Assembly: GCF_004402595.1 (NCBI RefSeq)
Contig: NZ_SOFY01000014.1
Span: forward strand, 62,001 to 126,000
DNA length: 64,000 nt
Reading direction: 5' to 3'
From: Cryobacterium shii
GTDB taxonomy: Bacteria > Actinomycetota > Actinomycetes > Actinomycetales > Microbacteriaceae
Part shown: in pieces, positions 5,643 through 63,866 of the stretch
How positions within the stretch are numbered: position 1 is the stretch's first letter
How the letters are laid out: every line of letters starts with the position of its first letter
Notes under the pieces: model-generated
Database searches by the model: none
Seen by the model: the letters and a program-made list of their open reading frames with translations, nothing else
What the model was told of the DNA's origin: nothing
Translations under genes and position numbers: made by a program

Positions 5643-6233
5643 GTGACTCCCGGGCGCGCGGCGATCGTCCTGCGGTCGCCGGCATCCGTCGCCGTCTTCG
5701 CGGCCGTGGCGCTGCTGTGCGCCGCGCTGCTGGTCGACGCGCTCCTGCGTGCGCGGGGGGCCGTGGCCCTGGTGTCCCTGCCGGCGGTGACGCTGGTGCT
5801 GTGGTCGGCCTGGCTCGTCTTCGCCCGGCCGTGCCTGCGGCTGTCCGGCACCGGGCTGACCATCGTCAACGTGCTGCGCACGACGACCGTGCCCTGGGGT
5901 GCGGTGGACGAGATCGTGCTGCGCCACCAGGTCGTCGTGGTGACCCGGTCAGGCGAGCGGCTGCGGTGCTGGGGAGCGCCGTCATCCGCCCGGTCGTCGA
6001 TGCCGGTCCGGTCGTCCGGGCCGGCCCCGCGGGCGGCGCAGGTGCGCGAGCCCAGCGGACGGATCAGCGGTAGCGCCGCCCACCGGGCGATCCAGGGCTA
6101 TTGGGAACGGCATGAGCGGCCGCAGGGCCCCACGGATGCCGCTGCACGCCGGTGGAACGGATGGTCGCTGCAGGTCGGCGTGGCGCTCCTCCTGGTCGTC
6201 GTCGCGCAGCTGATCTGGGCGGCGCAGGTCTGA
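5643..6233 (+). CDS. PH-domain-like membrane protein
   Basis: 196 aa protein of the small bacterial PH-domain type (bPH6/PF10756-like). Two membrane helices (about residues 10-60) precede a beta-rich segment (LRLSGTGLTIVN ... VPWGAVDEIVL) that matches the PH core. The linker is Ser/Pro/Arg-rich and a final hydrophobic helix ends the protein. GTG start 21 nt after the ATPase gene. It sits between two ABC operons but nothing ties it to peptide uptake. Function unknown; family placement is by pattern only. Confidence 0.7.
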   Translation: MTPGRAAIVLRSPASVAVFAAVALLCAALLVDALLRARGAVALVSLPAVTLVLWSAWLVFARPCLRLSGTGLTIVNVLRTTTVPWGAVDEIVLRHQVVVVTRSGERLRCWGAPSSARSSMPVRSSGPAPRAAQVREPSGRISGSAAHRAIQGYWERHERPQGPTDAAARRWNGWSLQVGVALLLVVVAQLIWAAQV

Positions 6234-6485
6234 GCGTTGCTCAATCCTCTGACCCCGGACTCAGCAAATTGCGACTTAAGTTTCGAAAATGTTACATGTT
6301 TTGTCAGGATCTGCCGCAGACTGTGATCTGGGGCAAAGGAGCTTCGCGCAGGCACAGGCTCGCCCCGTAACAACATTTGAAACGGTTCTGCCGCCGGGAA
6401 TCCTTCGGGCGGGAGCGCGACGGGGGAGTAAACAATGGGATCACTTCGTAGAACCATTCCGGCTGCCGTCTCTCGTTCCCCGTTC

Positions 6486-6491
6486 TAGGTT
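6486..6491 (+). promoter_or_regulatory. Candidate -10 (TAGGTT) for the second ABC importer operon
   Basis: TAGGTT lies 8 nt before the GTG at 6500, matching the TANNNT hexamers found upstream of many genes here. Transcription would begin at or within 2 nt of the start codon. The 266-nt gap 6234-6499 otherwise holds an AT-richer stretch (about 6265-6380) with no recognisable gene. Confidence 0.45.
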
Positions 6492-6499
6492 GACCGCGC

Positions 6500-7483: not shown

Positions 7484-7484
7484 G

Positions 7485-8435: not shown

Positions 8436-10647
8436 TCTTCTGCTGAACGGGAGCCCGGCGCGGCCCGGCCGTGGCCAGACGCCGCTGCTGGAGGTCACCG
8501 ACCTCTCGGTCACGTTCCCCCAGCGGGGAGGCCCCGCGGTGCAGGCCGTGCGCGGGATCAGCTACCAGGTGCACAAGGGCGAGTTCCTCGGCATCGTGGG
8601 CGAGTCCGGCTCCGGCAAATCGGTGTCCTCGCTCGCGTTGATGGGTCTGCTGCCCAGTTCGGCGGTTGTCACCGGCAGCATCATGTTCGGCGGCCGGTCG
8701 CTGCTGGACCTGAACGACCAGCAGCTCTCCCGCATCCGTGGCCGCGAAATCTCGATGATCTTCCAGGACCCGCTGTCGGCGCTGACCCCGGTGTACACCG
8801 TGGGCGACCAGATCGCGGAGGCCCTGCTGCTGCACGACCCCGCGTTGACCAAGCGTGCGGCGCAGGTTCGGGCGGTCGAGCTGCTCACGGTGGTCGGGAT
8901 CCCGGCGCCCGAACGACGCGCGCGGGCCTTCCCGCACGAGTTCTCCGGCGGGATGCGCCAGCGCGCGATGATCGCCATGTCGATCGCCAACGACCCCCTG
9001 CTGATCATCGCCGATGAGCCCACCACGGCCCTGGACGTCACGATCCAGGCCCAGATCCTGGAGGTACTGGAGACGGCGAAGAACCTGACCGGCGCCGCCG
9101 TCGTGCTGATCACCCACGACCTGGGCGTGGTGGCCGGCCACGCCGACCGGATCGCCGTGATGTACGCCGGGAAGCTCGTCGAGAACGGCACCACCCAGGA
9201 GGTCTTCGCGGCCCCGCACATGCCCTACACGATCGGCCTGCTGCGCTCGGTGCCCAATATGCAGACCGCCGGAACGGAACGACTGGTGCCGCTCGAGGGA
9301 CGCCCGCCGTCGCTGACGGCCCTGCCGCGCGGCTGCCCGTTCGCGGCCCGCTGTCCGATCTCCCTCGACGCCTGCCACGAGACCGAACCGGTGCTTCTCG
9401 TGCACGGGAACGCCGGCCCGGCCGGCATGACCGCGCCCGGCACGGCCGCTCCCGGCGCGCCCGTGGCCGGTCTGGCGGAGGCCGCGCACGTGGCAGCCTG
9501 CCACCGCTCGGACGAGATCGCCGACGGTGTTTTGACCCGCCCCGACGTTTTCCCCCGCCCGGCACCGCTGGCCGTGGCGCACCGGGAGAAGGACCAGGAT
9601 GCCCAGCCGGTCCTGACGGTGACCGGGCTGGTGCGGCATTTCCCGCTCACCAAGGGCGGGGTGTTCTCCCGCCAGATCGGCACCGTACGCGCGGTCGACG
9701 GGGTGTCCTTCTCGATCCTGCCCGGCCAGACCCTGGGCCTGGTCGGCGAGTCCGGCTGTGGCAAGTCCACGACGATCCTCGAGATCCTGGAGATGACGAA
9801 GCCGCAGGCCGGCCAGATCCTGATCGACGGCCGGGATGTCACCGGGCTCGGCCGGGCCGAGCTGCTCCGGTTGCGGAAGGACGTGCAGATCGTCTTCCAG
9901 GACCCGATGGCCGCCCTGGACCCGAGGCTGCCGATCGGCGACATCATCGGCGAACCCCTCACCGTGCACGGGGTGAAGCCCGCGGCCCGGCGCGCCCGGG
10001 TGGCTGAACTGCTCGACCTCGTGGGACTCGACCCGCAGATGGCGGACCGTTACCCGCACGAGTTCTCCGGCGGACAGCGGCAGCGCGTGGGCATTGCCCG
10101 GGCTCTGGCGACCAACCCCCGGCTCGTCGTCCTCGACGAACCCGTGTCCGCCCTGGACGTCTCGATCCAGGCCGGGGTGATCAACCTGCTCGAGGACCTC
10201 AAGGAGCAGCTGAACCTCTCCTACCTGTTCGTCGCGCACGACCTGGCGATCGTGCGCCAGATCGCGGACACGGTCGCCGTGATGTACCTGGGACGAATCG
10301 TCGAGTACGGGCCGGTCGCCGAGGTGTTCGCCCGCCCGCGGCATCCGTATACCCAGGCCCTGATCTCGGCGGCGCCGATCCCGGACCCGGTGATCGAGCG
10401 CAGGCGCAAGCGGGTGCTGCTCCAGGGCGACCTGCCCAGCCCGACCGAGCAGATCGACGGCTGCAACTTCCGCAGCCGCTGCCCCCTGTACGCGCTGCTC
10501 GCGCCGCAGGACCGCTCGCTCTGCGAGAGCGTCGACCCGGTTCTGGAACTGCACGCCACCGTGCAGACTGCCTGCCACCACGTCGAGCAGAACGAGCTGG
10601 CCATCTCGGCGTCGCTGGCCGGCCGCGAGGAAGACCTCGTGCTCTAA
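8428..10647 (+). CDS. Fused double ATP-binding protein with two cysteine-rich tails, second operon
   Basis: 739 aa double ABC ATPase. Domain 1: GESGSGKS near residue 60, FSGGMRQR near 172. Domain 2: GESGCGKST near residue 440, FSGGQRQR near 548. Each domain is followed by the oligopeptide-transport C-terminal extension with clustered cysteines (GCPFAARCP plus a later Cys after domain 1; GCNFRSRCP plus a later Cys after domain 2). In OppD/DppD relatives such cysteines are known to bind an iron-sulfur cluster; here that is inferred. About 160 residues longer than the other ATPase in the window. ATG lies within the end of the preceding permease gene. Confidence 0.94.
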   Translation: MTNLLLNGSPARPGRGQTPLLEVTDLSVTFPQRGGPAVQAVRGISYQVHKGEFLGIVGESGSGKSVSSLALMGLLPSSAVVTGSIMFGGRSLLDLNDQQLSRIRGREISMIFQDPLSALTPVYTVGDQIAEALLLHDPALTKRAAQVRAVELLTVVGIPAPERRARAFPHEFSGGMRQRAMIAMSIANDPLLIIADEPTTALDVTIQAQILEVLETAKNLTGAAVVLITHDLGVVAGHADRIAVMYAGKLVENGTTQEVFAAPHMPYTIGLLRSVPNMQTAGTERLVPLEGRPPSLTALPRGCPFAARCPISLDACHETEPVLLVHGNAGPAGMTAPGTAAPGAPVAGLAEAAHVAACHRSDEIADGVLTRPDVFPRPAPLAVAHREKDQDAQPVLTVTGLVRHFPLTKGGVFSRQIGTVRAVDGVSFSILPGQTLGLVGESGCGKSTTILEILEMTKPQAGQILIDGRDVTGLGRAELLRLRKDVQIVFQDPMAALDPRLPIGDIIGEPLTVHGVKPAARRARVAELLDLVGLDPQMADRYPHEFSGGQRQRVGIARALATNPRLVVLDEPVSALDVSIQAGVINLLEDLKEQLNLSYLFVAHDLAIVRQIADTVAVMYLGRIVEYGPVAEVFARPRHPYTQALISAAPIPDPVIERRRKRVLLQGDLPSPTEQIDGCNFRSRCPLYALLAPQDRSLCESVDPVLELHATVQTACHHVEQNELAISASLAGREEDLVL

Positions 10648-15779: not shown

Positions 15780-16811
15780 ATGGTCATGTCCGGCAGCGCA
15801 GAGCGAGTCGTGTTCCTGCACGACCGTCCCGGTCAGGAGGCCCTGCTCACCGGAGGCACTATCTCCCGGCTGCGCTCCGACGGAGCCGAGGTCGTCGTGC
15901 TGTTCGGGGCGTCCGGCGCCGCCGCCGGGGGCGACGACGCCGCCGTGGGCTCGGCGATGGCGGAGTTGGACGTGAGCGACTGGCGGATGCTGCCCGCGGC
16001 ATCCGTCGCCTCGCCGGAAGCCGGGCCGGACCGGCAGGCCCTGGCCGCGGCCGTGGCCGACGTGCTCGACGAGATTCAGGCCACCGCCCTCGTGATCGGC
16101 ACCGAGGACGAGCGCCTCCGCGACGCGGCCGTCGGGGCCGCCGACACCCTGCACGTGCCCGTCTTCGCCAGCCGCAGCGTGTCGGGGGCCATCGGCCAGC
16201 GCATCGTCGCGATCGACGTCAGCGACCACGTCGAGCAGAAGCTGCGAGCCGTCTGGGCCTACCCCGGGCGCTGGAGCGTCACGGGTCACACCGTGCTCCC
16301 GGTCGGCGCCGGCACGGGCCCAAACACCGGCACGGGCTCAGGCACGGGCGCCGTGCCGGTCGTGATCGGCGGCACCGAGACCTATCTGCGCCTGGAATCC
16401 CCGCACCGGGCCGCCGCCGAGGTCGCCGCGGAGCCGGGACTGGTCAGCCGCGCCCTGGCCGGCGTCTTCGCCCTGCTGATCGGTGCGGCCTTCGGCGTGG
16501 TCGGCACCATCGCGCACCAGGCCACCGTGCCGATCGGACCGGTCACGATCCCGGTGGGACTGATCCTGGCCCTGACCGGAGTGACCGCGCTGCTGGTCGG
16601 CCTCCGTCTGGTGCTCGGCGACCGCATGATCGTCCTGTTCTGCGCGCTGGGGCTGCTCGGCAGCATCTTCCTGCTGTCGCTGCGCAGCACGGGGGGCTCC
16701 GTGCTCGTTCCCCAGGGCCTTCCCGGCATGCTGTGGACCGTCGTGCCGGCGCTGGTGGCCACCCTCGTGCTCGCCTGGCCTCGAATTCCGGCCCGGCCGG
16801 GTTCGCAATAG
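15780..16811 (+). CDS. Degenerate PIG-L deacetylase domain fused to a four-helix membrane domain (DUF6113-like)
   Basis: 343 aa. Residues about 8-180 resemble LmbE/PIG-L deacetylases such as MshB (RVVFLHDRPGQEALLTGGTI, aligning with the HPDDE zinc loop). The zinc ligands are replaced: the loop reads H14-D-R16-P-G18-Q19-E20. After a Gly/Thr-rich linker (near 185-200), residues about 225-335 form four membrane helices resembling the small membrane protein encoded next to mshB in mycobacteria. GGAG at 15769-15772 supports the ATG; an in-frame GTG at 15720 is less likely. It lies just before fdxA and dapC. Catalysis is unlikely; role unknown. Confidence 0.75.
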   Translation: MVMSGSAERVVFLHDRPGQEALLTGGTISRLRSDGAEVVVLFGASGAAAGGDDAAVGSAMAELDVSDWRMLPAASVASPEAGPDRQALAAAVADVLDEIQATALVIGTEDERLRDAAVGAADTLHVPVFASRSVSGAIGQRIVAIDVSDHVEQKLRAVWAYPGRWSVTGHTVLPVGAGTGPNTGTGSGTGAVPVVIGGTETYLRLESPHRAAAEVAAEPGLVSRALAGVFALLIGAAFGVVGTIAHQATVPIGPVTIPVGLILALTGVTALLVGLRLVLGDRMIVLFCALGLLGSIFLLSLRSTGGSVLVPQGLPGMLWTVVPALVATLVLAWPRIPARPGSQ

Positions 16812-24713: not shown

Positions 24714-25906
24714 CCGTGCTGCCCGCCCCGTGGCGGGCCCGTTATTGCGCCACCCCGTGGTGGGCGCGGGTCACCCTGATCTGGGCGGCGTCCCGGATCG
24801 TCACCACCGCGCTGGTGCTGCTCCTGGCGAACGTGCAGGGACCCAACGCGTGGACGTCCGCTTCGCCCGGATACGCGGACTTCGCGAACATGTGGGACGG
24901 CCGCTGGTACAACATCGTTGCCGTCGTCGGCTACCCCTCCACCCTGCCGTTCACCGCGGACGGGCACGTGGGGGAGAGCGCCTGGGCGTTCATGCCCGGA
25001 TATCCGGCGATCGTGCGCCTGCTGATGGTGCTGGTCGGGCAGCCGTGGGCGCCCATGGCCGTCCTCGTGTCCGTGGCCTTCAGCCTCGGCGCGGCACTGC
25101 TGTTCTACCGGCTGATGCGACGGGTGCTGGACTCGTCGACGGCTCTGTTCTCGGTGGTGTTGTTCTGCGTGGCGCCGCTGTCGCCGCTCCTGCAGTTCGG
25201 CTACGCCGAGTCGATGTACCTGTTCCTGCTGACCCTGGCCCTGCTCCTGCTGCTGCAACGTCGCTACGCCTTGCTGTTCCCGGTGATCACCGTGATGGCC
25301 CTGACGCGGCCGAGTGGCCTCGCCTTCGCGCTCGCCCTGGGGCTGCACACGGTGTACCGCGCTGTCACGCGCCGGCAGGACCCGTTCCCGGCGGCGGACC
25401 GGGTGCTGGCGGCATCCGTCACCGGGTACAGCCTGCTCGCGGGACTCGCCTGGCCGGCCATCGCCTGGATCGGCACCGGGTCGATCACCGCGTACACCGA
25501 CACCGAACTCGCCTGGCGGGCGCCGTACATCGGTTACCAGGAGCTCATCCCGTTCACCGCGTGGTTCCAGAGCGGGGTCTGGTGGCTGGGGATGCCGCTC
25601 GGCATCGTCGCCGTCATCGTGCTGATTCTCCTGTTCGGCGCGGCGTTATTCCTGCCCCCGGTGAAGCGTCTCGGCGTCGATCTGCGCCTGTGGTTGGCCA
25701 GCTACGCGCTGTACCTGCTCGCGGTCTTCTTCCCGCAGTCGAGTACGTTCCGGCTGCTGATGCCGATGTTCCCGCTGCTCGGAGCGCTCGCCCCGCCGCG
25801 GAACACCGGGTACCGCATCGCCCTGGTGCTGGCGGGCATCCTCGGGCAGTGGGGCTGGTTGTTGCTGTGCTGGGGCGTCGACGGCGCGGACTGGACGCCG
25901 CCCTAG
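24689..25906 (+). CDS. PIG-V-like integral membrane mannosyltransferase
   Basis: 405 aa protein with about nine membrane helices, resembling the PIG-V/GPI mannosyltransferase family (GT-C fold). Those enzymes use polyprenyl-phosphate sugars at the outer membrane face. The first extracytoplasmic loop contains the acidic-aromatic stretch FANMWDGRWYNIVAVVGYP with the Asp/Trp pair typical of GT-C active sites. Further conserved segments are SAWAFMPGYPAIVR and FGYAESMY. The start overlaps the end of dapE by 25 nt; ATG at 24689 is preferred over GTG at 24668, but neither has a good ribosome site. Acceptor unknown. Confidence 0.8.
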   Translation: MAERTRRVAVLPAPWRARYCATPWWARVTLIWAASRIVTTALVLLLANVQGPNAWTSASPGYADFANMWDGRWYNIVAVVGYPSTLPFTADGHVGESAWAFMPGYPAIVRLLMVLVGQPWAPMAVLVSVAFSLGAALLFYRLMRRVLDSSTALFSVVLFCVAPLSPLLQFGYAESMYLFLLTLALLLLLQRRYALLFPVITVMALTRPSGLAFALALGLHTVYRAVTRRQDPFPAADRVLAASVTGYSLLAGLAWPAIAWIGTGSITAYTDTELAWRAPYIGYQELIPFTAWFQSGVWWLGMPLGIVAVIVLILLFGAALFLPPVKRLGVDLRLWLASYALYLLAVFFPQSSTFRLLMPMFPLLGALAPPRNTGYRIALVLAGILGQWGWLLLCWGVDGADWTPP

Positions 25907-49403: not shown

Positions 49404-50566
49404 CCGGCGGGCGCCGCCCCGGCGGACGAGGCCGCACCCGCACCGGTGCGGTCCCGGGTGGCTCCGTCGGCGTCGTCGTCATCGGCGAACTCGCTCGGCC
49501 CGAAGTCGGAGAGGTTGTAGGCATCCGTGTGCAGCGACGAGCTGAGGTCGCGCCGAGGGGTGTTCCGCGGTGTCGAGGCCAGCATGTTCTCGACGCCGGC
49601 GACGTCGAGGATAGGGCCGGTGTCGGGGGACAACGGATGCGAGGCGCTCCGGTGTACGTTGTCGACCAGCCCGTCGAGCATGGCGACGGCGTCGTCGACG
49701 ATGCCCTGGTTGCGGGTGTCCGTGCCGTGCAGCAGCCAGCGGGCCAGCTCCAGTTCGGCGTAGAGCATCGCGCGCTGCGTGATCCGCGGATCGTTGCCCT
49801 GGCGGGCGGTCGCGTAGGAGGCGACGGCGGTTTCGCCGGCCGCCCCGCGGGAGGCGAGCAGCCAGTGCAGGTCGCGGGCCGGGTCGCCCACGCTGAGCGC
49901 CGACCAGCCGAGCACGCCGGAGACGGAGTCCTCGCTGATCAAGAACGAGTCGGCGGACAGCGAGCCGTGCACCACGCACGGAGCGAACTGCCACAGGGAA
50001 TCGTCGTCCGTGGCCTGCTCCCACCGGCGGAGGAGGGCGGCGGGGAGGTAACCGGTGGCTGATGCGCGGTCGATCAGGTCGATGGCCCCGGTGCGGCAGT
50101 CCTGCGCGCTCTGCTGGGGGAGGCCGGCGGTGCCCACGAATGCGGTCGGCAGACCGTGGATCGCGGCGATGGCACGCCCGATCGACCCGGACACGCCGGC
50201 GTGGCCGGTCAGGGCATCCGCGTCGAACGAGTCGCCGTCCAGCAGCTCGTAGACGACGGCCCGGGTGCCGCTGAGCGGGGCCTGGCCCACGAACTCGGGC
50301 ACGTCGAAGGGGAGGCGGCTGCGGGTGCCGACCGTGAGGGCGCGCAGGGCCACGAGGTCGGCGGACTGCTCCGTTTCGGCGGCCTGGGAGACCGGTACGC
50401 GGATGATCAGCGACCGTCCCTCGGTGTCGATCAGCAGGGCGGAATCGAAGGAGCCGTTGGCTCCGGGAGTGCGTGCGCTGGAGCCGTAGGACCGGGCCCG
50501 GACGACGTCCAGTCCGGGAACGGCGGCAGTGGCCAGCGCGGCTAGAGTGAGAGGGGATCTGACCAT
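49295..50566 (-). CDS. Aminoglycoside-phosphotransferase-fold protein, probably inactive
   Basis: 423 aa protein with the APH/choline-kinase fold (VVYELLDGDSFDADALTGHA, PCVVHGSLSADSFLISEDSV, SVGDPARDLHWLLASRG). The catalytic HGDxxxxN loop reads His200-Gly-Ser202-Leu-Ser-Ala-Asp-Ser207, and the metal-binding Asp (usually IDW) is Gly220. Catalysis is therefore unlikely, pointing to a pseudokinase. The last ~70 residues are Asp/Ala/Gly-rich disorder and overlap adnB by 109 nt. TAACCT 7 nt before the ATG suggests a leaderless start. It is inserted on the opposite strand in an otherwise co-directional repair cluster. Confidence 0.8.
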   Translation of the reverse strand: MVRSPLTLAALATAAVPGLDVVRARSYGSSARTPGANGSFDSALLIDTEGRSLIIRVPVSQAAETEQSADLVALRALTVGTRSRLPFDVPEFVGQAPLSGTRAVVYELLDGDSFDADALTGHAGVSGSIGRAIAAIHGLPTAFVGTAGLPQQSAQDCRTGAIDLIDRASATGYLPAALLRRWEQATDDDSLWQFAPCVVHGSLSADSFLISEDSVSGVLGWSALSVGDPARDLHWLLASRGAAGETAVASYATARQGNDPRITQRAMLYAELELARWLLHGTDTRNQGIVDDAVAMLDGLVDNVHRSASHPLSPDTGPILDVAGVENMLASTPRNTPRRDLSSSLHTDAYNLSDFGPSEFADDDDADGATRDRTGAGAASSAGAAPAGHGADAVTGPIDIVAGSASDTAGRTDDQARTRSSSE

Positions 50567-51629: not shown

Positions 51630-53335
51630 CCGCCGCCTCCCTCCTGGCCGGCCTCGACGAGCAGCAGCGGGTGGCCGCCGAGGCCCTGGTCGGCCCGGTG
51701 TGCATGCTCGCCGGCGCCGGCACCGGCAAGACCCGCGCCATCACCCACCGGATCGCCTACGGCGTGATGACCGGCGCCTACTCGCCCGGCCGGGTGATGG
51801 CGCTCACGTTCACGGCGCGCGCCGCCGCGGAACTGCGCGGCCGGCTGCGCCAGCTGGGCGCGGGCGGCGTCGCCGCGCGCACGTTCCACGCGGCCGCCCT
51901 GTCCCAGCTGAACTATTTCTGGCCGCACGTGGTCGGCGGCCAGGCTCCCCGCATCCTCGACGGCAAGGGCCGTCTGCTCGGCCACGCCGCCGAAACCCTG
52001 AAACTCAAGCTGGACACCGCCACCCTGCGCGACCTGGCCGCCGAGATCGAGTGGCGCAAGACCTCCGGCCTCAGCATCGAGGCCTACGGCGCCGGGATCG
52101 CCCGGCGGAGCCTGCCCGGGCGGCTGGACGTGGACCAGGTCCTGACCATGCAGGAGACCTACGAGCGGCTCAAGGACGAACGCAAGCAGATCGACTTCGA
52201 GGACGTGCTGCTGGCCATGGCGGGGATGATCGAGGCGGAGCCGTCCGTGGCCCTGCAGGTGCGCGAGCAGTACCGCTTCTTCGTCGTCGACGAGTACCAG
52301 GACGTGTCGCCGCTGCAGCACGACCTGCTCTCGCTCTGGCTGGGGGAGCGGCGCGATCTCTGCGTGGTGGGCGACGCCAGCCAGACGATCTACTCGTTCA
52401 CCGGCGCCCGCAGCGACTACCTGCTCGACTTCCCGAAACGGTGGGAGGACGCGACCGTGGTGCGGCTGGAGCGCAACTACCGTTCCACCGCGTCGATCGT
52501 GTCCACCGCCAACCAGCTGATGCGCGGGCGGGCGGGGGCCCTGACGTTGCAGGCCAACGCCGCCGAGGCCGGCATCGAGCCGAGCGTGCGCGAGTACGCC
52601 AATGACATGGCCGAGGCGCGCGGCGTCGCGCAGAGCATCCTCGACCTGATCGAGGCCGGGACCAAGCCGGAGCAGATCGCCGTCCTGTTCCGGGTGAACG
52701 TGCAGGCGGCCTTTCTGGAGACCGCCCTCGGCGACGTCGGGGTGAGCTACCAGATCCGGGGCTCCAAGCGGTTCTTCGACCTCGCGGAGGTCAAGCAGGC
52801 GGTGATGCAGCTGCGGGCGGCATCCGTGTCGATCATTGGCGAGCCCCTGTTCAAATCCGTCAGCGATGTGCTGCGCTCCCTCGGCTGGAGCCAGAGCGCG
52901 CCGGAGGCCCCCGGGGCGGTGCGCGATCGCTGGGAGTCCCTCAACGCCATCATGGGCCTGGTCGATCAGGCGGCCCCGGGGACCACGTTCCGCCAGTTCA
53001 CCGACGAGCTGATGGAGCGCCAGGCCGGCCAGCACGAGCCGACGGTGTCCGCGGTGACGCTGGCGACCATGCACTCCGCGAAGGGTCTCGAGTGGGAGGC
53101 GGTCTTCCTGATCGGGCTGTCGGAGGGTCTGGTGCCAATCAGCTACGCCGGCACCTTCGAGCAGATCGACGAGGAACGCCGCCTGCTCTATGTGGGCATC
53201 ACCCGGGCCCGTCGCCGGCTCGCGCTGAGCTGGTCGGCGGCCGGACACCAGCAGCGCGCCCCGCGCGAGCGGTCCCGTTTCCTCGGCGAGATCGGCCTCC
53301 GCACCGCCCGTGCGGCCGGCGCCCGCGGCGCCTGA
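51620..53335 (+). CDS. uvrD2: UvrD2-like SF1 DNA helicase, short form without HRDC
   Basis: 571 aa 3'-5' helicase. Walker A is in LAGAGTGKT (near 30-38), then MALTFTARAAAEL, FFVVDEYQDVSPL, GDASQTIYSFTG, MHSAKGLEWEAV and YVGITRARRRLALSWS. Mycobacterial UvrD2 is near 700 aa and carries a C-terminal HRDC domain and a tetracysteine motif; this protein stops soon after helicase domain 2B, so both are missing. ATG lies in the NudC end (ATGGCGCTGA), implying coupled translation. Repetitive non-coding DNA follows at once. Confidence 0.93.
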   Translation: MALTAASLLAGLDEQQRVAAEALVGPVCMLAGAGTGKTRAITHRIAYGVMTGAYSPGRVMALTFTARAAAELRGRLRQLGAGGVAARTFHAAALSQLNYFWPHVVGGQAPRILDGKGRLLGHAAETLKLKLDTATLRDLAAEIEWRKTSGLSIEAYGAGIARRSLPGRLDVDQVLTMQETYERLKDERKQIDFEDVLLAMAGMIEAEPSVALQVREQYRFFVVDEYQDVSPLQHDLLSLWLGERRDLCVVGDASQTIYSFTGARSDYLLDFPKRWEDATVVRLERNYRSTASIVSTANQLMRGRAGALTLQANAAEAGIEPSVREYANDMAEARGVAQSILDLIEAGTKPEQIAVLFRVNVQAAFLETALGDVGVSYQIRGSKRFFDLAEVKQAVMQLRAASVSIIGEPLFKSVSDVLRSLGWSQSAPEAPGAVRDRWESLNAIMGLVDQAAPGTTFRQFTDELMERQAGQHEPTVSAVTLATMHSAKGLEWEAVFLIGLSEGLVPISYAGTFEQIDEERRLLYVGITRARRRLALSWSAAGHQQRAPRERSRFLGEIGLRTARAAGARGA

Positions 53336-54871: not shown

Positions 54872-55585
54872 ATGCCCCTGCTCCGCACTCTCGACGAGAT
54901 CATCGCCGTCGTCACGACCGCCACGGCTATCACGACCGCCACGGCTGTCACGGCCCCCACGGATGCCGGCCCGCGCCCGCATTCCCCGGCCGCAGCATCC
55001 CGCGCCGACGCCCCTGCGCGCACGATCATCGGCATCACCGGTTCCCCCGGGACCGGCAAGACGACGTTCGCCGAGGCCCTCGTCGCGCGGCTCAACACGC
55101 CGGTGTCGCGCGCGCAACTGGTCTCGATGGACGGCTTCCACCTGCCGCAGGCCCGGCTGGTTGAGCTCGGCCGCCGCGACCGCATGGGCGCGCCGGACAC
55201 CCTCGACGTCGACGGCTTCGTGCACCTGCTGCGCCGGCTGCGGTCCACCGACGGCCCCGTCACGGCGCCCGGCTTCGACCGGGAGACCGAGGAGGCGACC
55301 CCCGGCACGGTTCAGATCGACCCCGACCGGCGCATCCTGGTGGTCGAGGGCAACTATCTGCTGCACGACCGGGCCGGCTGGAAGCGGGTAGCGCCGCTAC
55401 TGAACCTGAGCCTGTTCGTGGGAGTGGACCGTTCGCTGCACCTGGCCCGGCTCGTCGCCCGGCACGAGCGCTACGGCAAGTCGGCGACGGATGCCCGCGC
55501 CTGGGCCCTCGGCCCCGACGAGGCCAACGCGCGCCTGATCGAGCTCACCCGGGCCCGCGCCGATCACGAGATCCGGCTCGGCTGA
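54872..55585 (+). CDS. P-loop nucleoside/sugar kinase-like protein (uridine kinase/PanK superfamily)
   Basis: 237 aa. P-loop GITGSPGTGKTT (near residues 52-63), SMDGFHLPQARL (substrate loop with Asp/His) and VEGNYLLHD (Walker-B region). The family includes YfdG/FrcK-like proteins annotated as nucleoside or fructose kinases; the real substrate is unclear. The first 50 residues contain an Ala/Thr-rich linker encoded by an 18-bp tandem repeat (54912-54947), absent from typical relatives. CATACT six nt before the ATG is a weak -10. Confidence 0.82.
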   Translation: MPLLRTLDEIIAVVTTATAITTATAVTAPTDAGPRPHSPAAASRADAPARTIIGITGSPGTGKTTFAEALVARLNTPVSRAQLVSMDGFHLPQARLVELGRRDRMGAPDTLDVDGFVHLLRRLRSTDGPVTAPGFDRETEEATPGTVQIDPDRRILVVEGNYLLHDRAGWKRVAPLLNLSLFVGVDRSLHLARLVARHERYGKSATDARAWALGPDEANARLIELTRARADHEIRLG

Positions 55586-56658: not shown

Positions 56659-58215
56659 ATGAAGCCTCGTCGCATTCTCGTCACCGGCGCCACCGGATAC
56701 ATCGGTGGCCGTCTGGTTCCCATGCTGCTGGAATCCGGGTTCGAGGTGCGAGTTCTCGTGCGCTCGCCGCAGAAGCTCAAGGACGTGCCCTGGGCGGGGC
56801 AGGTGGAGGTGGTCGAGGGTGACCTCGGGGACCTGGACTCGATGCGGGCCGCGTGCGCCGGCAGCGACGTGCTCTACTACCTCGTGCACTCCATGGGCAC
56901 GCGCGGCGATTTCGAGCGCACCGAGCGCACGGCGGCCCGGAATGTGGCGACCGCCGCCGCCGAGGCCGGCGTGTCCCGCATCATCTACCTCGGCGGGCTG
57001 CACCCCGACACCGCCGAGCTTTCCCAGCACCTGCGCTCGCGCGCCGAGGTCGGCCGTATTCTGCTGGAATCCGGTGTGCCCACGGCTGCGCTGCAGGCCG
57101 GCGTAGTGATCGGCTCCGGCTCGACCTCGTTCGAAATGATCCGCCACCTCACCGACGTGCTGCCGTATATGCCCGCACCGCAATGGGTGCGCAACAAGAT
57201 CCAGCCGATCGCCGTGCGCGACGTCCTCTACTACCTCGTCTCCTCGGTGGACCTGCCGGCGGACGTCAACCGCACGTTCGACATCGGCGGCCCCGACGTT
57301 CTCCGCTACGGCCAGATGATGAACGGCTACGCCCTCGAGGCCGGCCTGCGCCAGCGCCCGATCGCCTCGCTCCCCGTCTTCACTCCGTGGCTGGCCTCGC
57401 AGTGGGTGAACCTGGTCACCCCCATCCCGCGCAGCCTGGCCGTGCCCATCATCGCGTCGCTGCAGAACGACTGCGTCGTCCACGAGCGCGACATCGATGA
57501 GTACATTCCGCGACCGAAGGATGGCCTCACTCCCTACCGCACGGCCGTTCGGCTTGCCCTCGGACGCATGCGCGACGGTGACGTCGAGACCAGCTGGCGC
57601 AACGCGTCGATCGAGGGCGCGTCCAGCAACCCGCTGCCGAGCGACCCGGACTGGGCCGGACACCTCGTCTACACCGACCTGCGAGAAAAGCACACCGACG
57701 CGAAGCCGGCCGACCTGTGGCGTGTGATCGAGAGCATCGGCGGCGACAACGGCTGGTATTCCTTCCCACTGGCCTGGGCGGTGCGCGGCTGGATGGACAA
57801 GATCGTCGGCGGCGTGGGCCTCCGCCGCGGCCGCCGCAACCCCGACCACCTGCACACCGGGGACGTGCTCGACTTCTGGCGGGTCGAACAAATCGACCGA
57901 GGCAGGTTTCTGCGCCTGCGGGCCGAGATGCGGGTTCCCGGTCGGGCGTGGCTGGAGATGACCGCCGAGCCGGCACCGGACGGCGGCTCGATCTACCGGC
58001 AGCGAGCGGTCTTCTTCCCGCGCGGCCTGGGCGGACGCCTGTACTGGTTCTCCGTTCTCCCGTTCCACGGCGTGGTGTTCAGCGGGATGGCCAACCGCAT
58101 CACCGCTGCCGCGCTCGGGGAAGCGGCGCAAGCCGTCACGACCGACGCCGTCCAGACGGATGCCCGGAGCAGGGCGGACCCGGCATCCGTTGCCGCGCTG
58201 CCCGTCGAACCCTGA
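56659..58215 (+). CDS. NAD(P)-binding epimerase-like protein with DUF2867 domain
   Basis: 518 aa. An atypical SDR domain with GATGYIGGRLVP (6-17), LVHSMGTRGDFERTERTAAR and SRIIYLGGL occupies about 1-300. The C-terminal DUF2867 domain (about 330-490; NGWYSFPLAWAVRGWMDKIV, DFWRVEQIDRGRFLRLRAEM) resembles START-like ligand-binding folds. Widespread in actinobacteria and of unknown reaction, likely a lipid or sugar-lipid oxidoreductase by analogy. Length is normal for the two-domain family. Confidence 0.9.
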   Translation: MKPRRILVTGATGYIGGRLVPMLLESGFEVRVLVRSPQKLKDVPWAGQVEVVEGDLGDLDSMRAACAGSDVLYYLVHSMGTRGDFERTERTAARNVATAAAEAGVSRIIYLGGLHPDTAELSQHLRSRAEVGRILLESGVPTAALQAGVVIGSGSTSFEMIRHLTDVLPYMPAPQWVRNKIQPIAVRDVLYYLVSSVDLPADVNRTFDIGGPDVLRYGQMMNGYALEAGLRQRPIASLPVFTPWLASQWVNLVTPIPRSLAVPIIASLQNDCVVHERDIDEYIPRPKDGLTPYRTAVRLALGRMRDGDVETSWRNASIEGASSNPLPSDPDWAGHLVYTDLREKHTDAKPADLWRVIESIGGDNGWYSFPLAWAVRGWMDKIVGGVGLRRGRRNPDHLHTGDVLDFWRVEQIDRGRFLRLRAEMRVPGRAWLEMTAEPAPDGGSIYRQRAVFFPRGLGGRLYWFSVLPFHGVVFSGMANRITAAALGEAAQAVTTDAVQTDARSRADPASVAALPVEP

Positions 58216-59155: not shown

Positions 59156-59161
59156 GCGTTC

Positions 59162-59167: not shown

Positions 59168-59178
59168 CCGTGATGGGG

Positions 59179-59197: not shown

Positions 59198-59228
59198 TTT
59201 GTGCCGTCGCGGATGCGGGGCCGCTGAG

Positions 59229-59234: not shown

Positions 59235-59240
59235 GGGCGC

Positions 59241-61118
59241 ATGCGCCGATCGGTCCGTTTCCTGCTCATTGCCGCGCTCGGCGGCCTCACCCTGGGCGGC
59301 CTCGCCGCTCCGGCGGCTGCCGCGCCCGCCATCGTGGCCACCGACACCTCGGACTTCACGTTCGACTCGTGGCACGCCGATTTCCGGCTCGGGCTCACCG
59401 GCGACGGCCACTCCGCGCTGACCACCACCGAGACGATCGTCGCCCGCTTCCCGGAGTCCGACCAGAACCGGGGCATCCGCCGGGCCATCCCCACCCACTA
59501 CGACGGGCATCCGACCGACCTGACCCTGGTCAGTGTGACCGACGAGAACGGGCGCCCGCGGGCGACCGAGACCGAGACCACCGACGTCGACGGTGACCAG
59601 TTCCTCGAGGTGACCATCGCGGCCGAGGACTACGTGCACGGCGCGAACACCTACGTGATCGAGTACCGGCAGGTCGACGTCACGCTTTTGCCGACGGATG
59701 CCGCGGCCCCGGAGTTCTACTGGAAGGCCAACGGCACCGGCTGGACGCAACCCTTCGGCGACGTTTCGGCGACCCTCACGGTGGCCCCGGACCTGGCACC
59801 CCGCTTGACCGGCCAGTCGGCGTGCTACCAGGGCGGCGTCGACTCCGGCGAGCCCTGCGCGGACCTGACCGAGACCAGCGTCGACGGCGCCACGGTGATC
59901 GACGCCTCCGCCGGCAGCCTCGGCCCCTACCAGGGGCTCACCGTGTCGGTCGCTTTCGAGCCCGGCACGTTCGTGCCCCGCGACCAGTCGTTCACGGCGA
60001 ACCCGTTCCCCGGCATCGGCCTCGGCGCGCTGCTGCTCGGTCTGGTCCTGGCGGCGGTGGCGGCCGTCGCCCGGGCCACCCGGTGGCGTTCCGCGCCGGG
60101 GCGGCCCACCATCATCGCGGAGTACCTGCCGCCGAAGGGCGTGAACCTGCTTCAATGCGGCGACGTGGCCCGAGCGTCGGCGAAGGCGATTACGGCCCAG
60201 TTCCTCAGCTTCGCCGTGCGCGGGAATCTGCGGGTGCTCGAAGGAACGGGCAAGAAGCACTACCTGCTCGAGCTGCGGCACGCGCAGGGGCTCGACCCGG
60301 CCGAGAAAGCGGTGCTCCGGCTGCTGTTCCCGGGGCTGCACGAGGGCACGCGCCGGGACCTCAAATCGAAGGACACCGTGCTGGGCAAGGGCCTGACGAA
60401 GCAGCTCCAGGCCGTCAGACAGCAGGTGCTGACGGACGGGCTGCGGGAGAAGAAGGGCGGCCGGCTCCGCGGCTGGCTGCTCACTGGCGCCCTGTTGACC
60501 GGGGTCATCTGCGTCGCTGGCAGCATCGGTGGCCTCGTGACCGAGGTCGGCGGGGCCTGGCCGGCCGTGATCCTGATTTTCGGGGCGCTGGTCTCCATCG
60601 CGACCATCGCGCTCGCCGCCAGCGTGCGGCCGCTCACCCCGGCCGGCGCCGAACTCCGCGACTACCTGGCGGGCGTGCGGCTGTACATCGGCGTCGCCGA
60701 GACCGAACGGCTGCGGGTGCTGCAGAGCCCCGAGGGAGCGCTGCGGTCGCCCTACCGGCCGGATGCGGCATCCGTTCTCGGCCCGGACGTCGTCCGGGAT
60801 GCCGCGCTCGACCCGGCCGATCCGCTGCAGGTGCTCAAGCTCTACGAGCGGCTGCTGCCCTTCGCGGTTCTCTTCGGCCAGGAGACCGCGTGGTCGCAGG
60901 TGCTCGGCGACTACTACGCCCGGAGCGGCTTGGAGCCGGACTGGTACGCTGGCTCCGCCCCGTTCAGTCCGGTCTGGTTCGCCGCCGGCCTGAACTCGTT
61001 CTCCAGCTCCACCTCGGCATCCTGGTCGGGGAGCGCCTCGAGTTCCTCCAGTTCCGGTTCGGGCGGGGGAGGCTCGGTCGGCGGGGGCGGCGGCGGTGGC
61101 GGAGGAGGAGGAGTCTGA
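59241..61118 (+). CDS. DUF2207 membrane protein
   Basis: 625 aa. Signal peptide (RRSVRFLLIAALGGLTLGGL ... AAAAPA), then an extracytoplasmic beta-rich DUF2207 domain (about 30-245; SDQNRGIRRAIPTHYDG is the family core). A membrane helix lies near 255-275, then a cytosolic segment, a helical hairpin (about 415-455) and a C-terminal Ser/Gly-rich tail ending in eleven Gly. That is the usual layout for YciQ-like DUF2207 proteins, whose function is unknown. The DUF6804-like gene starts inside its stop (TGATG). Confidence 0.9.
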   Translation: MRRSVRFLLIAALGGLTLGGLAAPAAAAPAIVATDTSDFTFDSWHADFRLGLTGDGHSALTTTETIVARFPESDQNRGIRRAIPTHYDGHPTDLTLVSVTDENGRPRATETETTDVDGDQFLEVTIAAEDYVHGANTYVIEYRQVDVTLLPTDAAAPEFYWKANGTGWTQPFGDVSATLTVAPDLAPRLTGQSACYQGGVDSGEPCADLTETSVDGATVIDASAGSLGPYQGLTVSVAFEPGTFVPRDQSFTANPFPGIGLGALLLGLVLAAVAAVARATRWRSAPGRPTIIAEYLPPKGVNLLQCGDVARASAKAITAQFLSFAVRGNLRVLEGTGKKHYLLELRHAQGLDPAEKAVLRLLFPGLHEGTRRDLKSKDTVLGKGLTKQLQAVRQQVLTDGLREKKGGRLRGWLLTGALLTGVICVAGSIGGLVTEVGGAWPAVILIFGALVSIATIALAASVRPLTPAGAELRDYLAGVRLYIGVAETERLRVLQSPEGALRSPYRPDAASVLGPDVVRDAALDPADPLQVLKLYERLLPFAVLFGQETAWSQVLGDYYARSGLEPDWYAGSAPFSPVWFAAGLNSFSSSTSASWSGSASSSSSSGSGGGGSVGGGGGGGGGGGV

Positions 61119-61450
61119 TGGGCACCCCGGTCGAACCCACATTCAGTCGTTCCGCGCTCGCGCCCGGCCTGCTCGGCGCCGTCATCCTGCTCGGCGGGCT
61201 GGCCCTGCTGGACTCGGAAAGCTACATCATCATCCGGTACGCGGTGAGCATCCTCGCGCTGATCATCTGCGTCTTCGCCGTCCAGTCGAAGGCGTACCTG
61301 TGGCTGATCGCGCTCGTGCCGATCGCCGTGCTGTGGAACCCGATCGTCGTGATCGAGCTGCACGGCCAGGGCTGGGTGTCCGCCCAGTTCATCGCCGCCC
61401 TGGTCTTCATCATCGTCGGCGTCAGAACCAAGGTGCCGGTGCATCAGTAG
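61118..61450 (+). CDS. Small membrane protein (DUF6804-like)
   Basis: 110 aa with four short membrane helices (LAPGLLGAVILLGGLALLD, YAVSILALIICVFAVQ, AYLWLIALVPIAVLWNPI, AQFIAALVFIIVGVRT) and the segment WNPIVVIELHGQGW typical of DUF6804. Translationally coupled to the DUF2207 gene. Role unknown; the coupling suggests a complex. Confidence 0.82.
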   Translation: MGTPVEPTFSRSALAPGLLGAVILLGGLALLDSESYIIIRYAVSILALIICVFAVQSKAYLWLIALVPIAVLWNPIVVIELHGQGWVSAQFIAALVFIIVGVRTKVPVHQ

Positions 61451-61685
61451 GGACCCGCGGGCGTAGACTGGCCCCACGCCGCGAAAGCCCGCTGACCGCC
61501 TCGACCGTGCTGCCACACTGACCGGCTGCCACATCGAGAATGCGGGCGCACGAATCTCGGTGCCACTAATGTCGGTGACACGATGCTTGATCAGGCCTCG
61601 GCGTATCGATCGCACCGGTATCCACGGATGCCGCACCACGTCGAGCACGGTTCTCTTTGCCGCGCTGCTGTGAAGTTGGAGAAGA

Positions 61686-63866
61686 ATGGCATACACCCGC
61701 CACCAGGCCGCCGGTTCGAATACCCGTGCCGCCGCCGGAGGTCGCCAGCGGCAGCGACCCCGTTCCCGTGACGATGACGCCCCCATCATCCCGATCCTCG
61801 CCCGCAAGGTGCGCGAGGTCGAGGCGAAGGCGCAGACCGGCGCGAAGCTCGGCCCGACCAACCGCACCAAGTACCAGGTCATCGCGCTGCTCATGCGCGA
61901 GGAGCGCGCCCGGGTCAAGGGCGACAAGGAACTCACCGACGCCAACCGCGCCGAACTCCTCAAGCGCCTCGACGGGATCGCGCAGATCCTGGCGAAGACC
62001 GCGGCACGCGACACCAGCCTGATCACCCTGCTCGAACCCGACGCGGGGGTGTCCACGGTCGCGCAGCGGTTCCGCCGCGACTGGCTGATCGAATCCGGCG
62101 CCGAGCTGTCCCCGGACGAGCTCATCATCACCCGGGAGCCCGAAGCCAAGCCCGAGATGCCGGTCAACCAGGTCATCCCGCAGTCGGTCAAGGCCCGGCA
62201 GCTGGCCAACCCGTTCCTCGCGCCCGATTTCAGTGCCGCGCAGGCTCCGCCGGTCGTCTCCGGCCGCCGTCTCGCCAACTGGGAGCTGATCGGCTCGCTG
62301 TTCAAATCCTTCGAGTACGGCTCCGGCGGCCAGGCCGCCAGCATGGACCTGCCCGAGGCGCCCCGCGTCGACCGGCTTTCGCCTCGCGGCATGGAGCTGA
62401 TGCGTCACCAGGCCCGGTTCGTCGAAAGCGCGCGCCTCGGCCACCGCAGCTACCTGCTCGCCGACGAGCCGGGACTCGGCAAGACGGCGCAGAGCCTGCT
62501 CGCGGCATCCGTCAGCGGGTCATACCCGCTGCTCGCCATCGTCCCCAACGTCGTCAAGATGAACTGGGTCCGTGAGGTGGAACTGTGGACGCCGAACCGC
62601 CGGGCCACCGTCATCCACGGTGACGGCGACACCCTCGACGCGTTCGCCGACGTGGTCATCGTCAACTACGACGTTCTCGACCGGCACCGCACCTGGCTCG
62701 GTACCCTCGGGTTCAAAGGCATGGTCGTCGACGAGGCGCACTTCATCAAGAACCTCCAGTCCCAGCGGTCCAAGCACGTGCTGGCCCTGGCCGAGCAGAT
62801 CCGCCGCCGCACCCCGGGAGGGAACCCGCTGCTGATGGCCCTGACCGGTACGCCGCTGATCAACGACGTCGACGATTTCCGTGCGATCTGGCAGTTCCTG
62901 GGCTGGATCGACGGCGACAAGCCCACCGCCAAGCTGATGGCCAGGCTCGAAGCCATCGGGCTGACCCCGGCGGATTCCGGCTTCTACTCCGCGGCGCGCG
63001 CCGCCGTGATCGACATGGGCATCGTGCGCCGCCGCAAGGTCGATGTCGCCGCCGACCTGCCGGCCAAGCGCATCGCCGACCTGCCGGTCGAGCTGGACGA
63101 CGACCTCGGGCGCTCCATCCGCCAGGCCGAACGCGAGCTCGCCGCCCGCCTGGTCACCCGGTACCACTCGCTCGTGGCCGCCCGCCACCCGGGCCAGACG
63201 CCGCCGGTGCTCGACGGCGAGCAGAGGGCCGCTTTCGTCCGCGCCGTCGCGCACGCCGAACTCGAGGAATCGAAGGGGCAGAGCACGGGGGAGAACGTCT
63301 TCACCATGGTGCGCAAGATCGGCCAGGCCAAGGCCGCCCTCGCGGCGGACTACGCCGTGCAGCTGGCACACTCGGTCGGCAAGGTCGTGTTCTTCGCCAA
63401 GCACATCGATGTGATGGATGCCGCGGAAGACATCTTCGCTCGGCGCGGCCTGCGCACGGTGTCCCTGCGCGGGGACCAGACCGCCCTGGCTCGCCAGGCG
63501 GCCATCGACGCCTTCAACGACGACCCGGGGGTGGCCGTCGTGGTCTGCTCCCTGTCCGCCGCCGGCGTCGGCGTCAACCTGCAGGCCGCATCCCACGTCG
63601 TGCTCGCCGAGCTCAGCTGGACCGCGGCGGAACAGACCCAGGCCATCGACCGGGTGCACCGGATCGGCCAGGACGAGCCGGTCACGGCCTGGCGGATCAT
63701 CGCCGCGCACACGATCGACGCGCGCATTGCCGAGCTGATCGGGAGCAAGCAGGGCCTCGCCGCCCGAGCCCTCGACGGCGCCGAGGAAGAAATCTCTTCC
63801 GCTGACTCCGTGCAGGCCAGCGCACTGATCTACCTGCTCACCCAGGCGCTCGACGGGGAGCTGTAG
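61686..63866 (+). CDS. SNF2-family DEAD/DEAH-box helicase
   Basis: 726 aa ATPase of the SWI2/SNF2 type. An N-terminal helical region of about 220 residues is unique to the group. The motor follows: DEPGLGKTAQSLL (Walker A near 264), VDEAHFIKN (DEAH), LTGTPLIND, then domain 2 with VVFFAKHIDVMD, SLSAAGVGVNLQAA and QAIDRVHRIGQ. Such proteins translocate on duplex DNA; partner and role are unknown, with no restriction or defence genes nearby. GGAGAAGA gives a good ribosome site. The 235-nt gap before it holds no recognisable gene. Confidence 0.88.
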   Translation: MAYTRHQAAGSNTRAAAGGRQRQRPRSRDDDAPIIPILARKVREVEAKAQTGAKLGPTNRTKYQVIALLMREERARVKGDKELTDANRAELLKRLDGIAQILAKTAARDTSLITLLEPDAGVSTVAQRFRRDWLIESGAELSPDELIITREPEAKPEMPVNQVIPQSVKARQLANPFLAPDFSAAQAPPVVSGRRLANWELIGSLFKSFEYGSGGQAASMDLPEAPRVDRLSPRGMELMRHQARFVESARLGHRSYLLADEPGLGKTAQSLLAASVSGSYPLLAIVPNVVKMNWVREVELWTPNRRATVIHGDGDTLDAFADVVIVNYDVLDRHRTWLGTLGFKGMVVDEAHFIKNLQSQRSKHVLALAEQIRRRTPGGNPLLMALTGTPLINDVDDFRAIWQFLGWIDGDKPTAKLMARLEAIGLTPADSGFYSAARAAVIDMGIVRRRKVDVAADLPAKRIADLPVELDDDLGRSIRQAERELAARLVTRYHSLVAARHPGQTPPVLDGEQRAAFVRAVAHAELEESKGQSTGENVFTMVRKIGQAKAALAADYAVQLAHSVGKVVFFAKHIDVMDAAEDIFARRGLRTVSLRGDQTALARQAAIDAFNDDPGVAVVVCSLSAAGVGVNLQAASHVVLAELSWTAAEQTQAIDRVHRIGQDEPVTAWRIIAAHTIDARIAELIGSKQGLAARALDGAEEEISSADSVQASALIYLLTQALDGEL

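What the first reader, a model, noticed from the sequence alone, without database searches (positions are those of the whole stretch)
5681..62512. A 9-mer, ACGGATGCC/GGCATCCGT, is about thirty-fold over-represented
By eye I count at least 24 copies in 64 kb: 12 as ACGGATGCC (6132, 27823, 36916, 39174, 42194, 45133, 46584, 54959, 55487, 58156, 59694, 61624) and 12 as GGCATCCGT (5681, 10340, 15998, 25411, 27749, 37410, 47672, 49520, 52819, 58182, 60767, 62504). Base composition near 68% GC predicts roughly one. The 8-mer CGGATGCC/GGCATCCG occurs about 40 times against about 5 expected. It appears in both orientations equally, in genes on both strands and in at least two non-coding sites. In genes it forces codons that are otherwise rare here (GCA for Ala, GAT for Asp) and encodes different peptides by orientation (T-D-A or A-S-V). 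That argues for selection on DNA rather than protein: a recombination hotspot for the AdnAB machinery, a nucleoid or segregation site, a methylation target or an uptake-type word are all possible.
Basis: partly seen in the sequence, partly recalled or inferred. Interest (0 to 1): 0.72.

Follow-up and report, generated by a model that had tools for sequence, protein, structure and literature searches.

The report
Repeated DNA word across Microbacteriaceae
A nine-letter DNA word occurs about a thousand times in the genome of this Cryobacterium, and many related genera carry slightly altered versions of it, so it looks like a self-recognition tag for DNA uptake of a kind described so far in two other bacterial families.

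Summary
In detail: 12 + 12 exact copies of ACGGATGCC in the window at the listed coordinates, about 1 expected. The genome, a Cryobacterium, has 1,031 copies; all 57 genomes examined in the genus are rich in it. It is not a codon effect: 110 coding copies in a 438 kb sample against 8.4 after synonymous shuffling. Copies are conserved beyond their amino acids, show no strand polarity and are absent from 29 kb of foreign-looking DNA. The wider finding is dialects: words sharing GGATG(C) with other flanks are enriched in many Microbacteriaceae genera, and two Cryobacterium genomes differ in one base. Best explanation: a DNA-uptake sequence, which would be a third family after Neisseriaceae and Pasteurellaceae. 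Shown: the word, its maintenance, its dialects. Inferred: uptake. Against it: type IV pilus genes do not track the word, inverted pairs are rare, and this genome's comEC is split. Main rival, untested: a HIP1-like methylation/repair word. Chi and KOPS are rejected for lack of polarity.

The parts
5681..5689 (-). word copy, in gene 5643-6233 (reads PASV)
6132..6140 (+). word copy, in gene 5643-6233 (TDA)
10340..10348 (-). word copy, in gene 8428-10647, an ABC transporter ATPase (RHPY)
15998..16006 (-). word copy, in gene 15780-16811 (AASV)
25411..25419 (-). word copy, in gene 24716-25906 (AASV)
27749..27757 (-). word copy, in gene 27563-28243 (TDA)
27823..27831 (+). word copy, in gene 27563-28243 (RHPS)
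36916..36924 (+). word copy, in gene 36696-37757 (EASV)
37410..37418 (-). word copy, in gene 36696-37757 (TDA)
39174..39182 (+). word copy, outside called genes
42194..42202 (+). word copy, in a weakly supported ORF 42100-42408 (LASV)
45133..45141 (+). word copy, in the first of the two AdnAB-like genes, 42739-46023 (TDA)
46584..46592 (+). word copy, in the second AdnAB-like gene, 46020-49403 (TDA)
47672..47680 (-). word copy, in the second AdnAB-like gene (RASV)
49520..49528 (-). word copy, outside called genes
52819..52827 (-). word copy, in a UvrD-like helicase gene 51620-53335 (AASV)
54959..54967 (+). word copy, in gene 54872-55585 (TDA)
55487..55495 (+). word copy, in gene 54872-55585 (TDA)
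58156..58164 (+). word copy (TDA), one half of a convergent pair with 58182
58182..58190 (-). word copy (PASV), other half of the convergent pair, near the end of gene 56659-58215
59694..59702 (+). word copy, in gene 59241-61118 (TDA)
60767..60775 (-). word copy, in gene 59241-61118 (AASV)
61624..61632 (+). word copy, in a short gap between called genes
62504..62512 (-). word copy, in a SNF2-type helicase gene 61686-63866 (AASV)

Best explanation
The word is a DNA-uptake sequence. It marks Cryobacterium DNA so that a surface filament or DNA receptor of the natural-transformation machinery preferentially binds and imports DNA carrying it. Repeated import and recombination of word-bearing fragments spreads and maintains copies throughout the core genome (molecular drive, with or without selection). 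The receptor reads a strict core CGGATG with looser edges, roughly V-CGGATG-Y-N, and has drifted in specificity between species and genera, giving dialects around GGATG(C) across Microbacteriaceae. Shown here: enrichment, equal orientations, maintenance, strict core with loose edges, dialects, absence from a sample of foreign-looking DNA, and a comEC domain and a type IV pilus operon in the genus. Inferred: that uptake is the cause, and what the receptor is (a type IV minor pilin where that pilus exists; a Tad/Flp pilus part, as Tad pili serve transformation in Micrococcus luteus, where it does not).
For: (1) 1,031 copies in 3.49 Mb, 529/502 by strand. (2) DNA level: 110 coding copies against 8.4 in 30 synonymous shuffles, maximum 14; 0.315 per kb in genes, 0.390 in short gaps. 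(3) Maintenance: in the pairwise-identity bins from 82 to 88%, sites are exactly conserved in 61-68% against 20-28% for codon-phase-matched controls; where amino acids are identical, 103/150 against 3,014/9,467. (4) No replichore polarity: neighbours 55 same / 58 opposite; C. breve chromosome p = 0.77. (5) Single mismatches in CGGATG are mostly not enriched, those at the first and last two positions are. (6) Dialects sharing a core; A:G before CGGATGCC is 132:52 in this genome and 65:124 in C. breve at the same GC, p = 4.5e-13. DUS also has dialects with a conserved core (PMC3630211, passages). (7) 0 copies in 29.4 kb of long atypical low-GC stretches, p = 2.4e-4; DUS density also falls in islands (PMC7371117, passage). 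(8) Machinery in this genome: PilB, a second ATPase in pilT position, PilC, three ORFs with N_methyl matches (one below Pfam's cut-off), PilD, PilM, PilO. The ComEC domain is matched in 58 of 58 handles, 57 distinct genomes. (9) comEC is interrupted near one conserved position in 5 of 57, as mobile elements do to competence genes elsewhere (PMC4774983, passages).
Against: I know of no uptake experiment in any Microbacteriaceae; one search for the family with natural transformation and type IV pili gave one paper, on earthworm symbionts (listing only). Type IV pilus genes do not predict the word: 71 genomes, Fisher p = 0.12, 0.34 and 0.81 at three thresholds, rank test p = 0.61; strong dialects occur in genomes without PilM or PilB matches (G433, G150, G132, G151, G097). 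ComEC is matched in 79 of 80 genomes, although 22 of the 71 measured show a GGATGC ratio under 1.4. Inverted pairs are rare: 9 pairs within 60 bp among 405 sites, 4 of them convergent. At about one copy per 3.4 kb the word is sparser than the one per 400-1,100 bp quoted for DUS. The window's own comEC is split. Near-miss sites in excess at the edges only also fit the HIP1 pattern. Spacing is not unusually even (CV 1.10). In the lowest identity bin (72%) site conservation is 4/41 against a control of 5.4%.
Confidence: 0.5

Rival explanations
1. A HIP1-like word: an orphan DNA methyltransferase recognises the core (GGATG or GATGC) and a methylation-linked mismatch-repair bias creates and protects copies; dialects reflect changes of enzyme.
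For: In cyanobacteria HIP1 is enriched genome-wide, can be replaced by alternate words with matching methyltransferases, and its one-base deviations lie at the outer positions (PMC4390886, abstract and passages). Here too deviations lie at the edges and variants replace each other. GGATG and GCATC are, from memory, recognition sequences of the type IIS enzymes FokI and SfaNI.
Against: The word is not a palindrome. The shared core stays while flanks change by single bases, even within one genus at equal GC, which suits a drifting receptor. No methyltransferase was looked for.
Confidence: 0.22
2. Binding sites of a chromosome-organising (nucleoid) protein spread through the genome.
For: Both orientations, genes and gaps alike, sites conserved.
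Against: Selection on a thousand separate sites is hard to picture; genus-to-genus dialects and absence in many genera would be unusual for such a protein (inference).
Confidence: 0.12
3. A relic: an uptake word of an ancestor, now decaying where the uptake machinery is lost.
For: Word-type enrichment in genomes without type IV pilus matches; comEC split in this genome.
Against: Sites conserved above control between Cryobacterium genomes; mismatches in the core not in excess.
Confidence: 0.09
4. A Chi-like recombination hotspot for AdnAB.
For: AdnAB-like genes are in the window.
Against: No polarity. AdnA is found in Frigoribacterium, Rathayibacter, Planctomonas and other Leifsonia, where the 9-mer is absent or nearly so and the core only 1.3-1.7-fold.
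Confidence: 0.04
5. A polar FtsK-type segregation word (KOPS).
For: High copy number only.
Against: No strand bias along the C. breve chromosome (p = 0.77).
Confidence: 0.02
6. By-product of codon or dipeptide usage.
For: 55 of 110 coding copies read TDA and 31 read ASV.
Against: Synonymous shuffles give 8.4 copies, not 110; short intergenic gaps are as dense; sites are conserved at identical amino acids.
Confidence: 0.01

Closest known systems
DNA uptake sequence (DUS) of Neisseriaceae, receptor ComP
   Same: Short enriched word, dialects with a strict inner core, scarce in islands (PMC3630211 and PMC7371117, passages).
   Different: Unrelated sequence, Actinobacteria, sparser (about one per 3.4 kb against one per 400-1,100 bp), few inverted pairs, no receptor known, pilus genes do not track the word.
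Uptake signal sequence (USS) of Pasteurellaceae, proposed receptor PpdA/ComN
   Same: A 9-mer, two variants with a conserved core (PMC12616744, passages).
   Different: Unrelated sequence and phylum; no transformation data here. [quoted passage not shown]
HIP1 and alternate HIPs of cyanobacteria
   Same: Genome-wide word, alternates in some lineages, deviations at the edges (PMC4390886, passages).
   Different: HIPs are palindromes tied to methyltransferases; this word is not a palindrome and no methyltransferase was tested.
Chi and KOPS
   Same: High-copy short words.
   Different: Those are strand-polar (general knowledge); this word is not.

Membership tests
DNA uptake sequence (USS/DUS) | 9-12 nt word strongly enriched genome-wide | tested here: met
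DNA uptake sequence (USS/DUS) | Both orientations equal, no replichore polarity | tested here: met
DNA uptake sequence (USS/DUS) | Enriched in coding DNA beyond codon usage | tested here: met
   on a 438 kb sample
DNA uptake sequence (USS/DUS) | Dialects with a conserved inner core among relatives | tested here: met
DNA uptake sequence (USS/DUS) | Scarce in recently acquired DNA | tested here: met
   0 sites in 29.4 kb, p = 2.4e-4; seven stretches in a 438 kb sample
DNA uptake sequence (USS/DUS) | Frequent inverted pairs acting as terminators | tested here: not met
   4 convergent pairs within 60 bp among 405 sites; a common trait of the known cases, but a single motif suffices there
DNA uptake sequence (USS/DUS) | Competence machinery present | tested here: met
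   ComEC domain matched in all 57 distinct Cryobacterium genomes, interrupted in 5 including this one; two more have partial matches. Pilus operon in this genome; PilM and PilB matches in the one other Cryobacterium tested, G002
DNA uptake sequence (USS/DUS) | Word presence tracks the uptake pilus across relatives | tested here: not met
   71 genomes, Fisher p 0.12-0.81; Tad pili not tested
DNA uptake sequence (USS/DUS) | Preferential uptake of word-bearing DNA | not testable with these tools
   needs an experiment
DNA uptake sequence (USS/DUS) | Sequence-specific receptor | not tested
   prepilin-like ORFs seen in the operon, no binding test
Chi site | Strand polarity with respect to replication | tested here: not met
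KOPS | Strong polarity from origin to terminus | tested here: not met
HIP1-type word | Palindromic | tested here: not met
   the sequence itself
HIP1-type word | Deviations concentrated at the outer positions | tested here: met
HIP1-type word | Cognate orphan methyltransferase | not tested

The most novel reading that the evidence does not exclude
Microbacteriaceae, a family of monoderm Actinobacteria, evolved their own DNA-uptake language independently of Neisseriaceae and Pasteurellaceae: a GGATG(C)-centred word with genus- and species-level dialects, read by a pilus-borne receptor (type IV or Tad), gained and lost repeatedly across the family, with mobile elements answering by inserting into comEC.
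Probability: 0.45. Interest if true: 0.93.

Novelty: new variant of a known kind. Interest (0 to 1): 0.8.

Why it matters
Discrimination of own DNA at the binding step is said to be known from two Gram-negative families only (PMC12616744, passage). A third, independent case in Actinobacteria, with several dialects in one family, would show that it evolves repeatedly and in cells without an outer membrane, would offer many natural contrasts for finding the receptor, and would predict which genera are transformable and with what tag. If it proves to be a methylation or repair word instead, it would be a non-palindromic counterpart of the HIP1 puzzle.

Tried and rejected
Strand polarity: lists showed runs of + sites in several genomes and suggested a polar word. 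Fetched stretches of G433 contain reverse sites that the list omitted, and again lists + sites first, so this is a listing artefact. The C. breve chromosome shows no polarity.

Reversed-word control of the genome search (15 copies): rejected as the yardstick because it contains TA; Markov and synonymous-shuffle nulls used instead.

Type IV pilus as the predictor of the word: tested with PilM and PilB over 80 genomes and not supported. Of 79 genomes with fetched stretches, 8 were dropped before the count because under 9 kb was held (G083, G115, G118, G119, G125, G136, G138, G142); 71 remain. For most of these one 20 kb stretch was measured, so single ratios are rough. G146, with a weak PilM match below the cut-off, was counted as lacking the pilus.

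Inverted-repeat terminators: too few pairs. Even spacing: not seen.

The word-free comparison set was chosen by me from named and unnamed loci with low enrichment (it includes Leifsonia at 1.7-fold), so it serves as a baseline for the mismatch spectrum, not as independent proof of the word's excess.

Papers: PMC3630211, PMC12616744, PMC4322843, PMC4774983, PMC7371117, PMC4390886 and PMC6370729 were seen as passages only; others only as listings. Searches listed no paper on an uptake word in Actinobacteria; three of them showed only the first 10 to 15 of many hits. One search searched with a wrong genus guess (Brevibacterium).
Full report
WHAT WAS CLAIMED AND WHAT IS THERE. Dinucleotide shuffles expect 1.05 and never exceed 5 in 100; Markov models of order 1 to 4 expect 0.9 to 2.5, and the word has the highest z of the 9-mers with at least 8 copies. 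The window is positions 62,001-126,000 of contig C56 of a 3.49 Mb genome in 91 contigs with 529 forward and 502 reverse copies. The nearest named relatives of the window's AdnA-like gene are Cryobacterium, the best, a MAG, at 95%; the genus belongs to Microbacteriaceae.

NOT A CODON EFFECT. In 438 kb of this genome (window plus 20 stretches) there are 132 copies, 110 in genes called by my own simple caller and 22 outside. Shuffling synonymous codons within genes gives 8.4 on average and at most 14 in 30 trials. Short gaps between genes carry 0.390 per kb against 0.315 in genes. The reading frame is not free: TDA 55, ASV 31, GIR 17, other 7, as expected when a DNA word must be accommodated by tolerable peptides.

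MAINTAINED. Between 43 loci of the AdnA region (42 named Cryobacterium and Glaciibacter superstes), sites stay identical more often than 9-mers at the same codon phase nearby: 36% against 11% in the 76% identity bin, 61% against 23% in the 84% bin; the lowest bin (72%) gives 4 of 41 against 5% (pairs are ordered and not independent). With amino acids identical in both, 103 of 150 site comparisons are identical in DNA against 3,014 of 9,467 controls (11 distinct sites, so also not independent).

NO POLARITY. Neighbouring sites in this genome point the same way 55 times and oppositely 58 times; in the first listed sites of other contigs 35 and 50. In the complete C. breve chromosome the word extended to ACGGATGCCGCG occurs 128 times; the 100 listed show no two-replichore pattern (p = 0.77). 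This removes Chi-like and KOPS-like readings in their usual form.

CORE AND EDGES. In 1.72 Mb of pooled Cryobacterium DNA, ACGGATGCC occurs 405 times against 29.7 expected. Changes at the first position (G 7.1-fold, C 2.7-fold, T 0.7-fold) and at the last two positions (1.7 to 7.9-fold) are also enriched; changes inside CGGATG are mostly not, the exception being C to A at its first base (2.1-fold). A comparison with 0.66 Mb from low-enrichment relatives that I picked agrees: the degenerate word RCGGATGY is 4.6-fold here and 1.4-fold there. So the recognised unit is about six to nine bases with a strict centre.

FOREIGN-LOOKING DNA LACKS IT. Seven stretches of at least 1.5 kb in which no gene with host-like codon use was called (29.4 kb, GC 61%) hold 0 sites, p = 2.4e-4 against genes. 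They include a SIR2/HerA segment beside comEC and carbohydrate-use genes. Density per 20 kb correlates with GC (21 windows, rho 0.74), although the word, with six of nine bases G or C, should itself be barely sensitive to GC in this range (my arithmetic).

DISTRIBUTION. The 57 genomes examined in the genus, this one included, hold 272 to 1,390 copies. The 23 genomes of other families of the order hold 9 to 75. In the family, 398 genomes were counted: members of several genera exceed 1,100 copies, up to 1,564, others are at background. Named genera with many copies in one 23 kb locus are Leifsonia sp. Leaf264 (10), L. flava (11), Glaciibacter flavus (9) and Mycetocola manganoxydans (9). In 295 genomes of the class, by my reading of the table (sizes are rounded), GGATGC is at about 1.3 to 2.7 per kb in 16 of 17 family members, drawn from three genera, the exception being G227 at 0.7, and at no more than about 1.1 in the 278 others.

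DIALECTS. Counts in relatives that did not presuppose the word return the same core with other flanks. G433 has CGGATGCGT as its top 9-mer (39 against 3.0), and G150 has CCGGATGCC (22 against 3.2) and CCGGATGCG (24 against 3.8). In six Subtercola loci GGATGCCC is the top 8-mer (66 against 3.6), and GGATGC is the top-ranked hexamer in Salinibacterium, Subtercola, the two Leifsonia genomes just named (pooled), Glaciibacter flavus and two MAGs. Over 71 genomes of 69 genera with at least 9 kb fetched (8 of 79 dropped as too short), GGATGC is the top hexamer in 11 and in the top ten in 25; 22 of 71 have a ratio under 1.4, among them 6 of the 9 genomes under 2 Mb. Inside Cryobacterium the first base differs: this genome has 132 ACGGATGCC to 52 GCGGATGCC, C. 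breve 65 to 124, at equal GC (p = 4.5e-13; table by species).

MACHINERY. The genome carries PilB and, next to it, a second T2SSE ATPase in the position of pilT (that it is PilT is inferred from place and size), in an operon with PilC, a pilin, two more ORFs with N_methyl matches (one below Pfam's cut-off), a large ORF without match, PilD and PilM, an ORF in pilN position without match, and PilO. Two further T2SSE ATPases, on C24 and C80, are presumably TadA (inference). The ComEC domain is matched in all 58 handles scanned, which are 57 genomes because G465 and G065 give the same place, and in 79 of 80 genomes across the family. PilM is matched in 46 of 80, one of them below the family cut-off, and MshEN, a domain of PilB, in 47 of 80, a few weakly. 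Pilus presence does not predict the word, which is the main weakness of the uptake reading. Transformation in Micrococcus luteus runs on Tad pili (PMC4322843, passages), so a Tad-borne receptor is a possible answer, not tested here.

comEC. In this genome the gene is in two places: the C-terminal part on C44 behind a SIR2/HerA segment and the N-terminal part on C83. Four other genomes (G002, G006, G014, G033) have a domain match that begins at nearly the same place; G011 has one that begins somewhat earlier, and G027 has its match on two contigs. The five C-terminal pieces resume at or just before the conserved SGANC residues. Mobile elements that break competence genes are read elsewhere as defending themselves against removal by transformation (PMC4774983, passages). 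That would support live transformation in the genus but makes this particular strain a doubtful transformer.

WEIGHING. An uptake word accounts for equal orientations, coding and intergenic sites, strict core with loose edges, maintenance, scarcity in foreign DNA, and drifting dialects with a fixed core; dialects with a fixed core and scarcity in islands are described for the known cases. The HIP1 model, a methyltransferase-linked repair bias, shares several of these, including edge-biased deviations and replacement words, and was not tested. I put uptake at 0.5, HIP1-like at 0.22, a nucleoid protein at 0.12, a decaying relic at 0.09, Chi and KOPS at 0.06 together, codon usage at 0.01.

LITERATURE. 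[quoted passage not shown] Searches in the held library listed no paper on an uptake word in Actinobacteria; some lists were capped, and most subscription journals and preprints are not in that library, so this is not proof of absence.

Noticed in passing
L036:4147-14117 (G000 C44) and L052 (G000 C83); L264-L267: comEC is split in this Cryobacterium; a SIR2-like/HerA segment precedes the C-terminal part, and four more of 57 Cryobacterium genomes have comEC interrupted at or just before the same conserved SGANC residues: apparently a recurrent insertion site in a competence gene.
   Followed up: partly
438 kb sample of G000: Words around AATTCGACGGAGATT (24 to 28 copies) and runs of 12 C (22 counts) are also over-represented; not examined.
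   Followed up: no
pooled Cryobacterium stretches: Some loci carry the word or near-copies in 15-bp tandem steps (ACGGATGCTGCGTCG and similar).
   Followed up: no
genus g99, genome G227: One genome has 38 copies of the 9-mer and background GGATGC, while the ten other sampled members of the genus have 119 to 947: a loss, or a natural contrast for finding the gene responsible.
   Followed up: no
L158 (G000 C91:1-20000): Complete-looking type IV pilus operon with two T2SSE ATPases, beside GGDEF/EAL genes.
   Followed up: partly
   Followed up: yes
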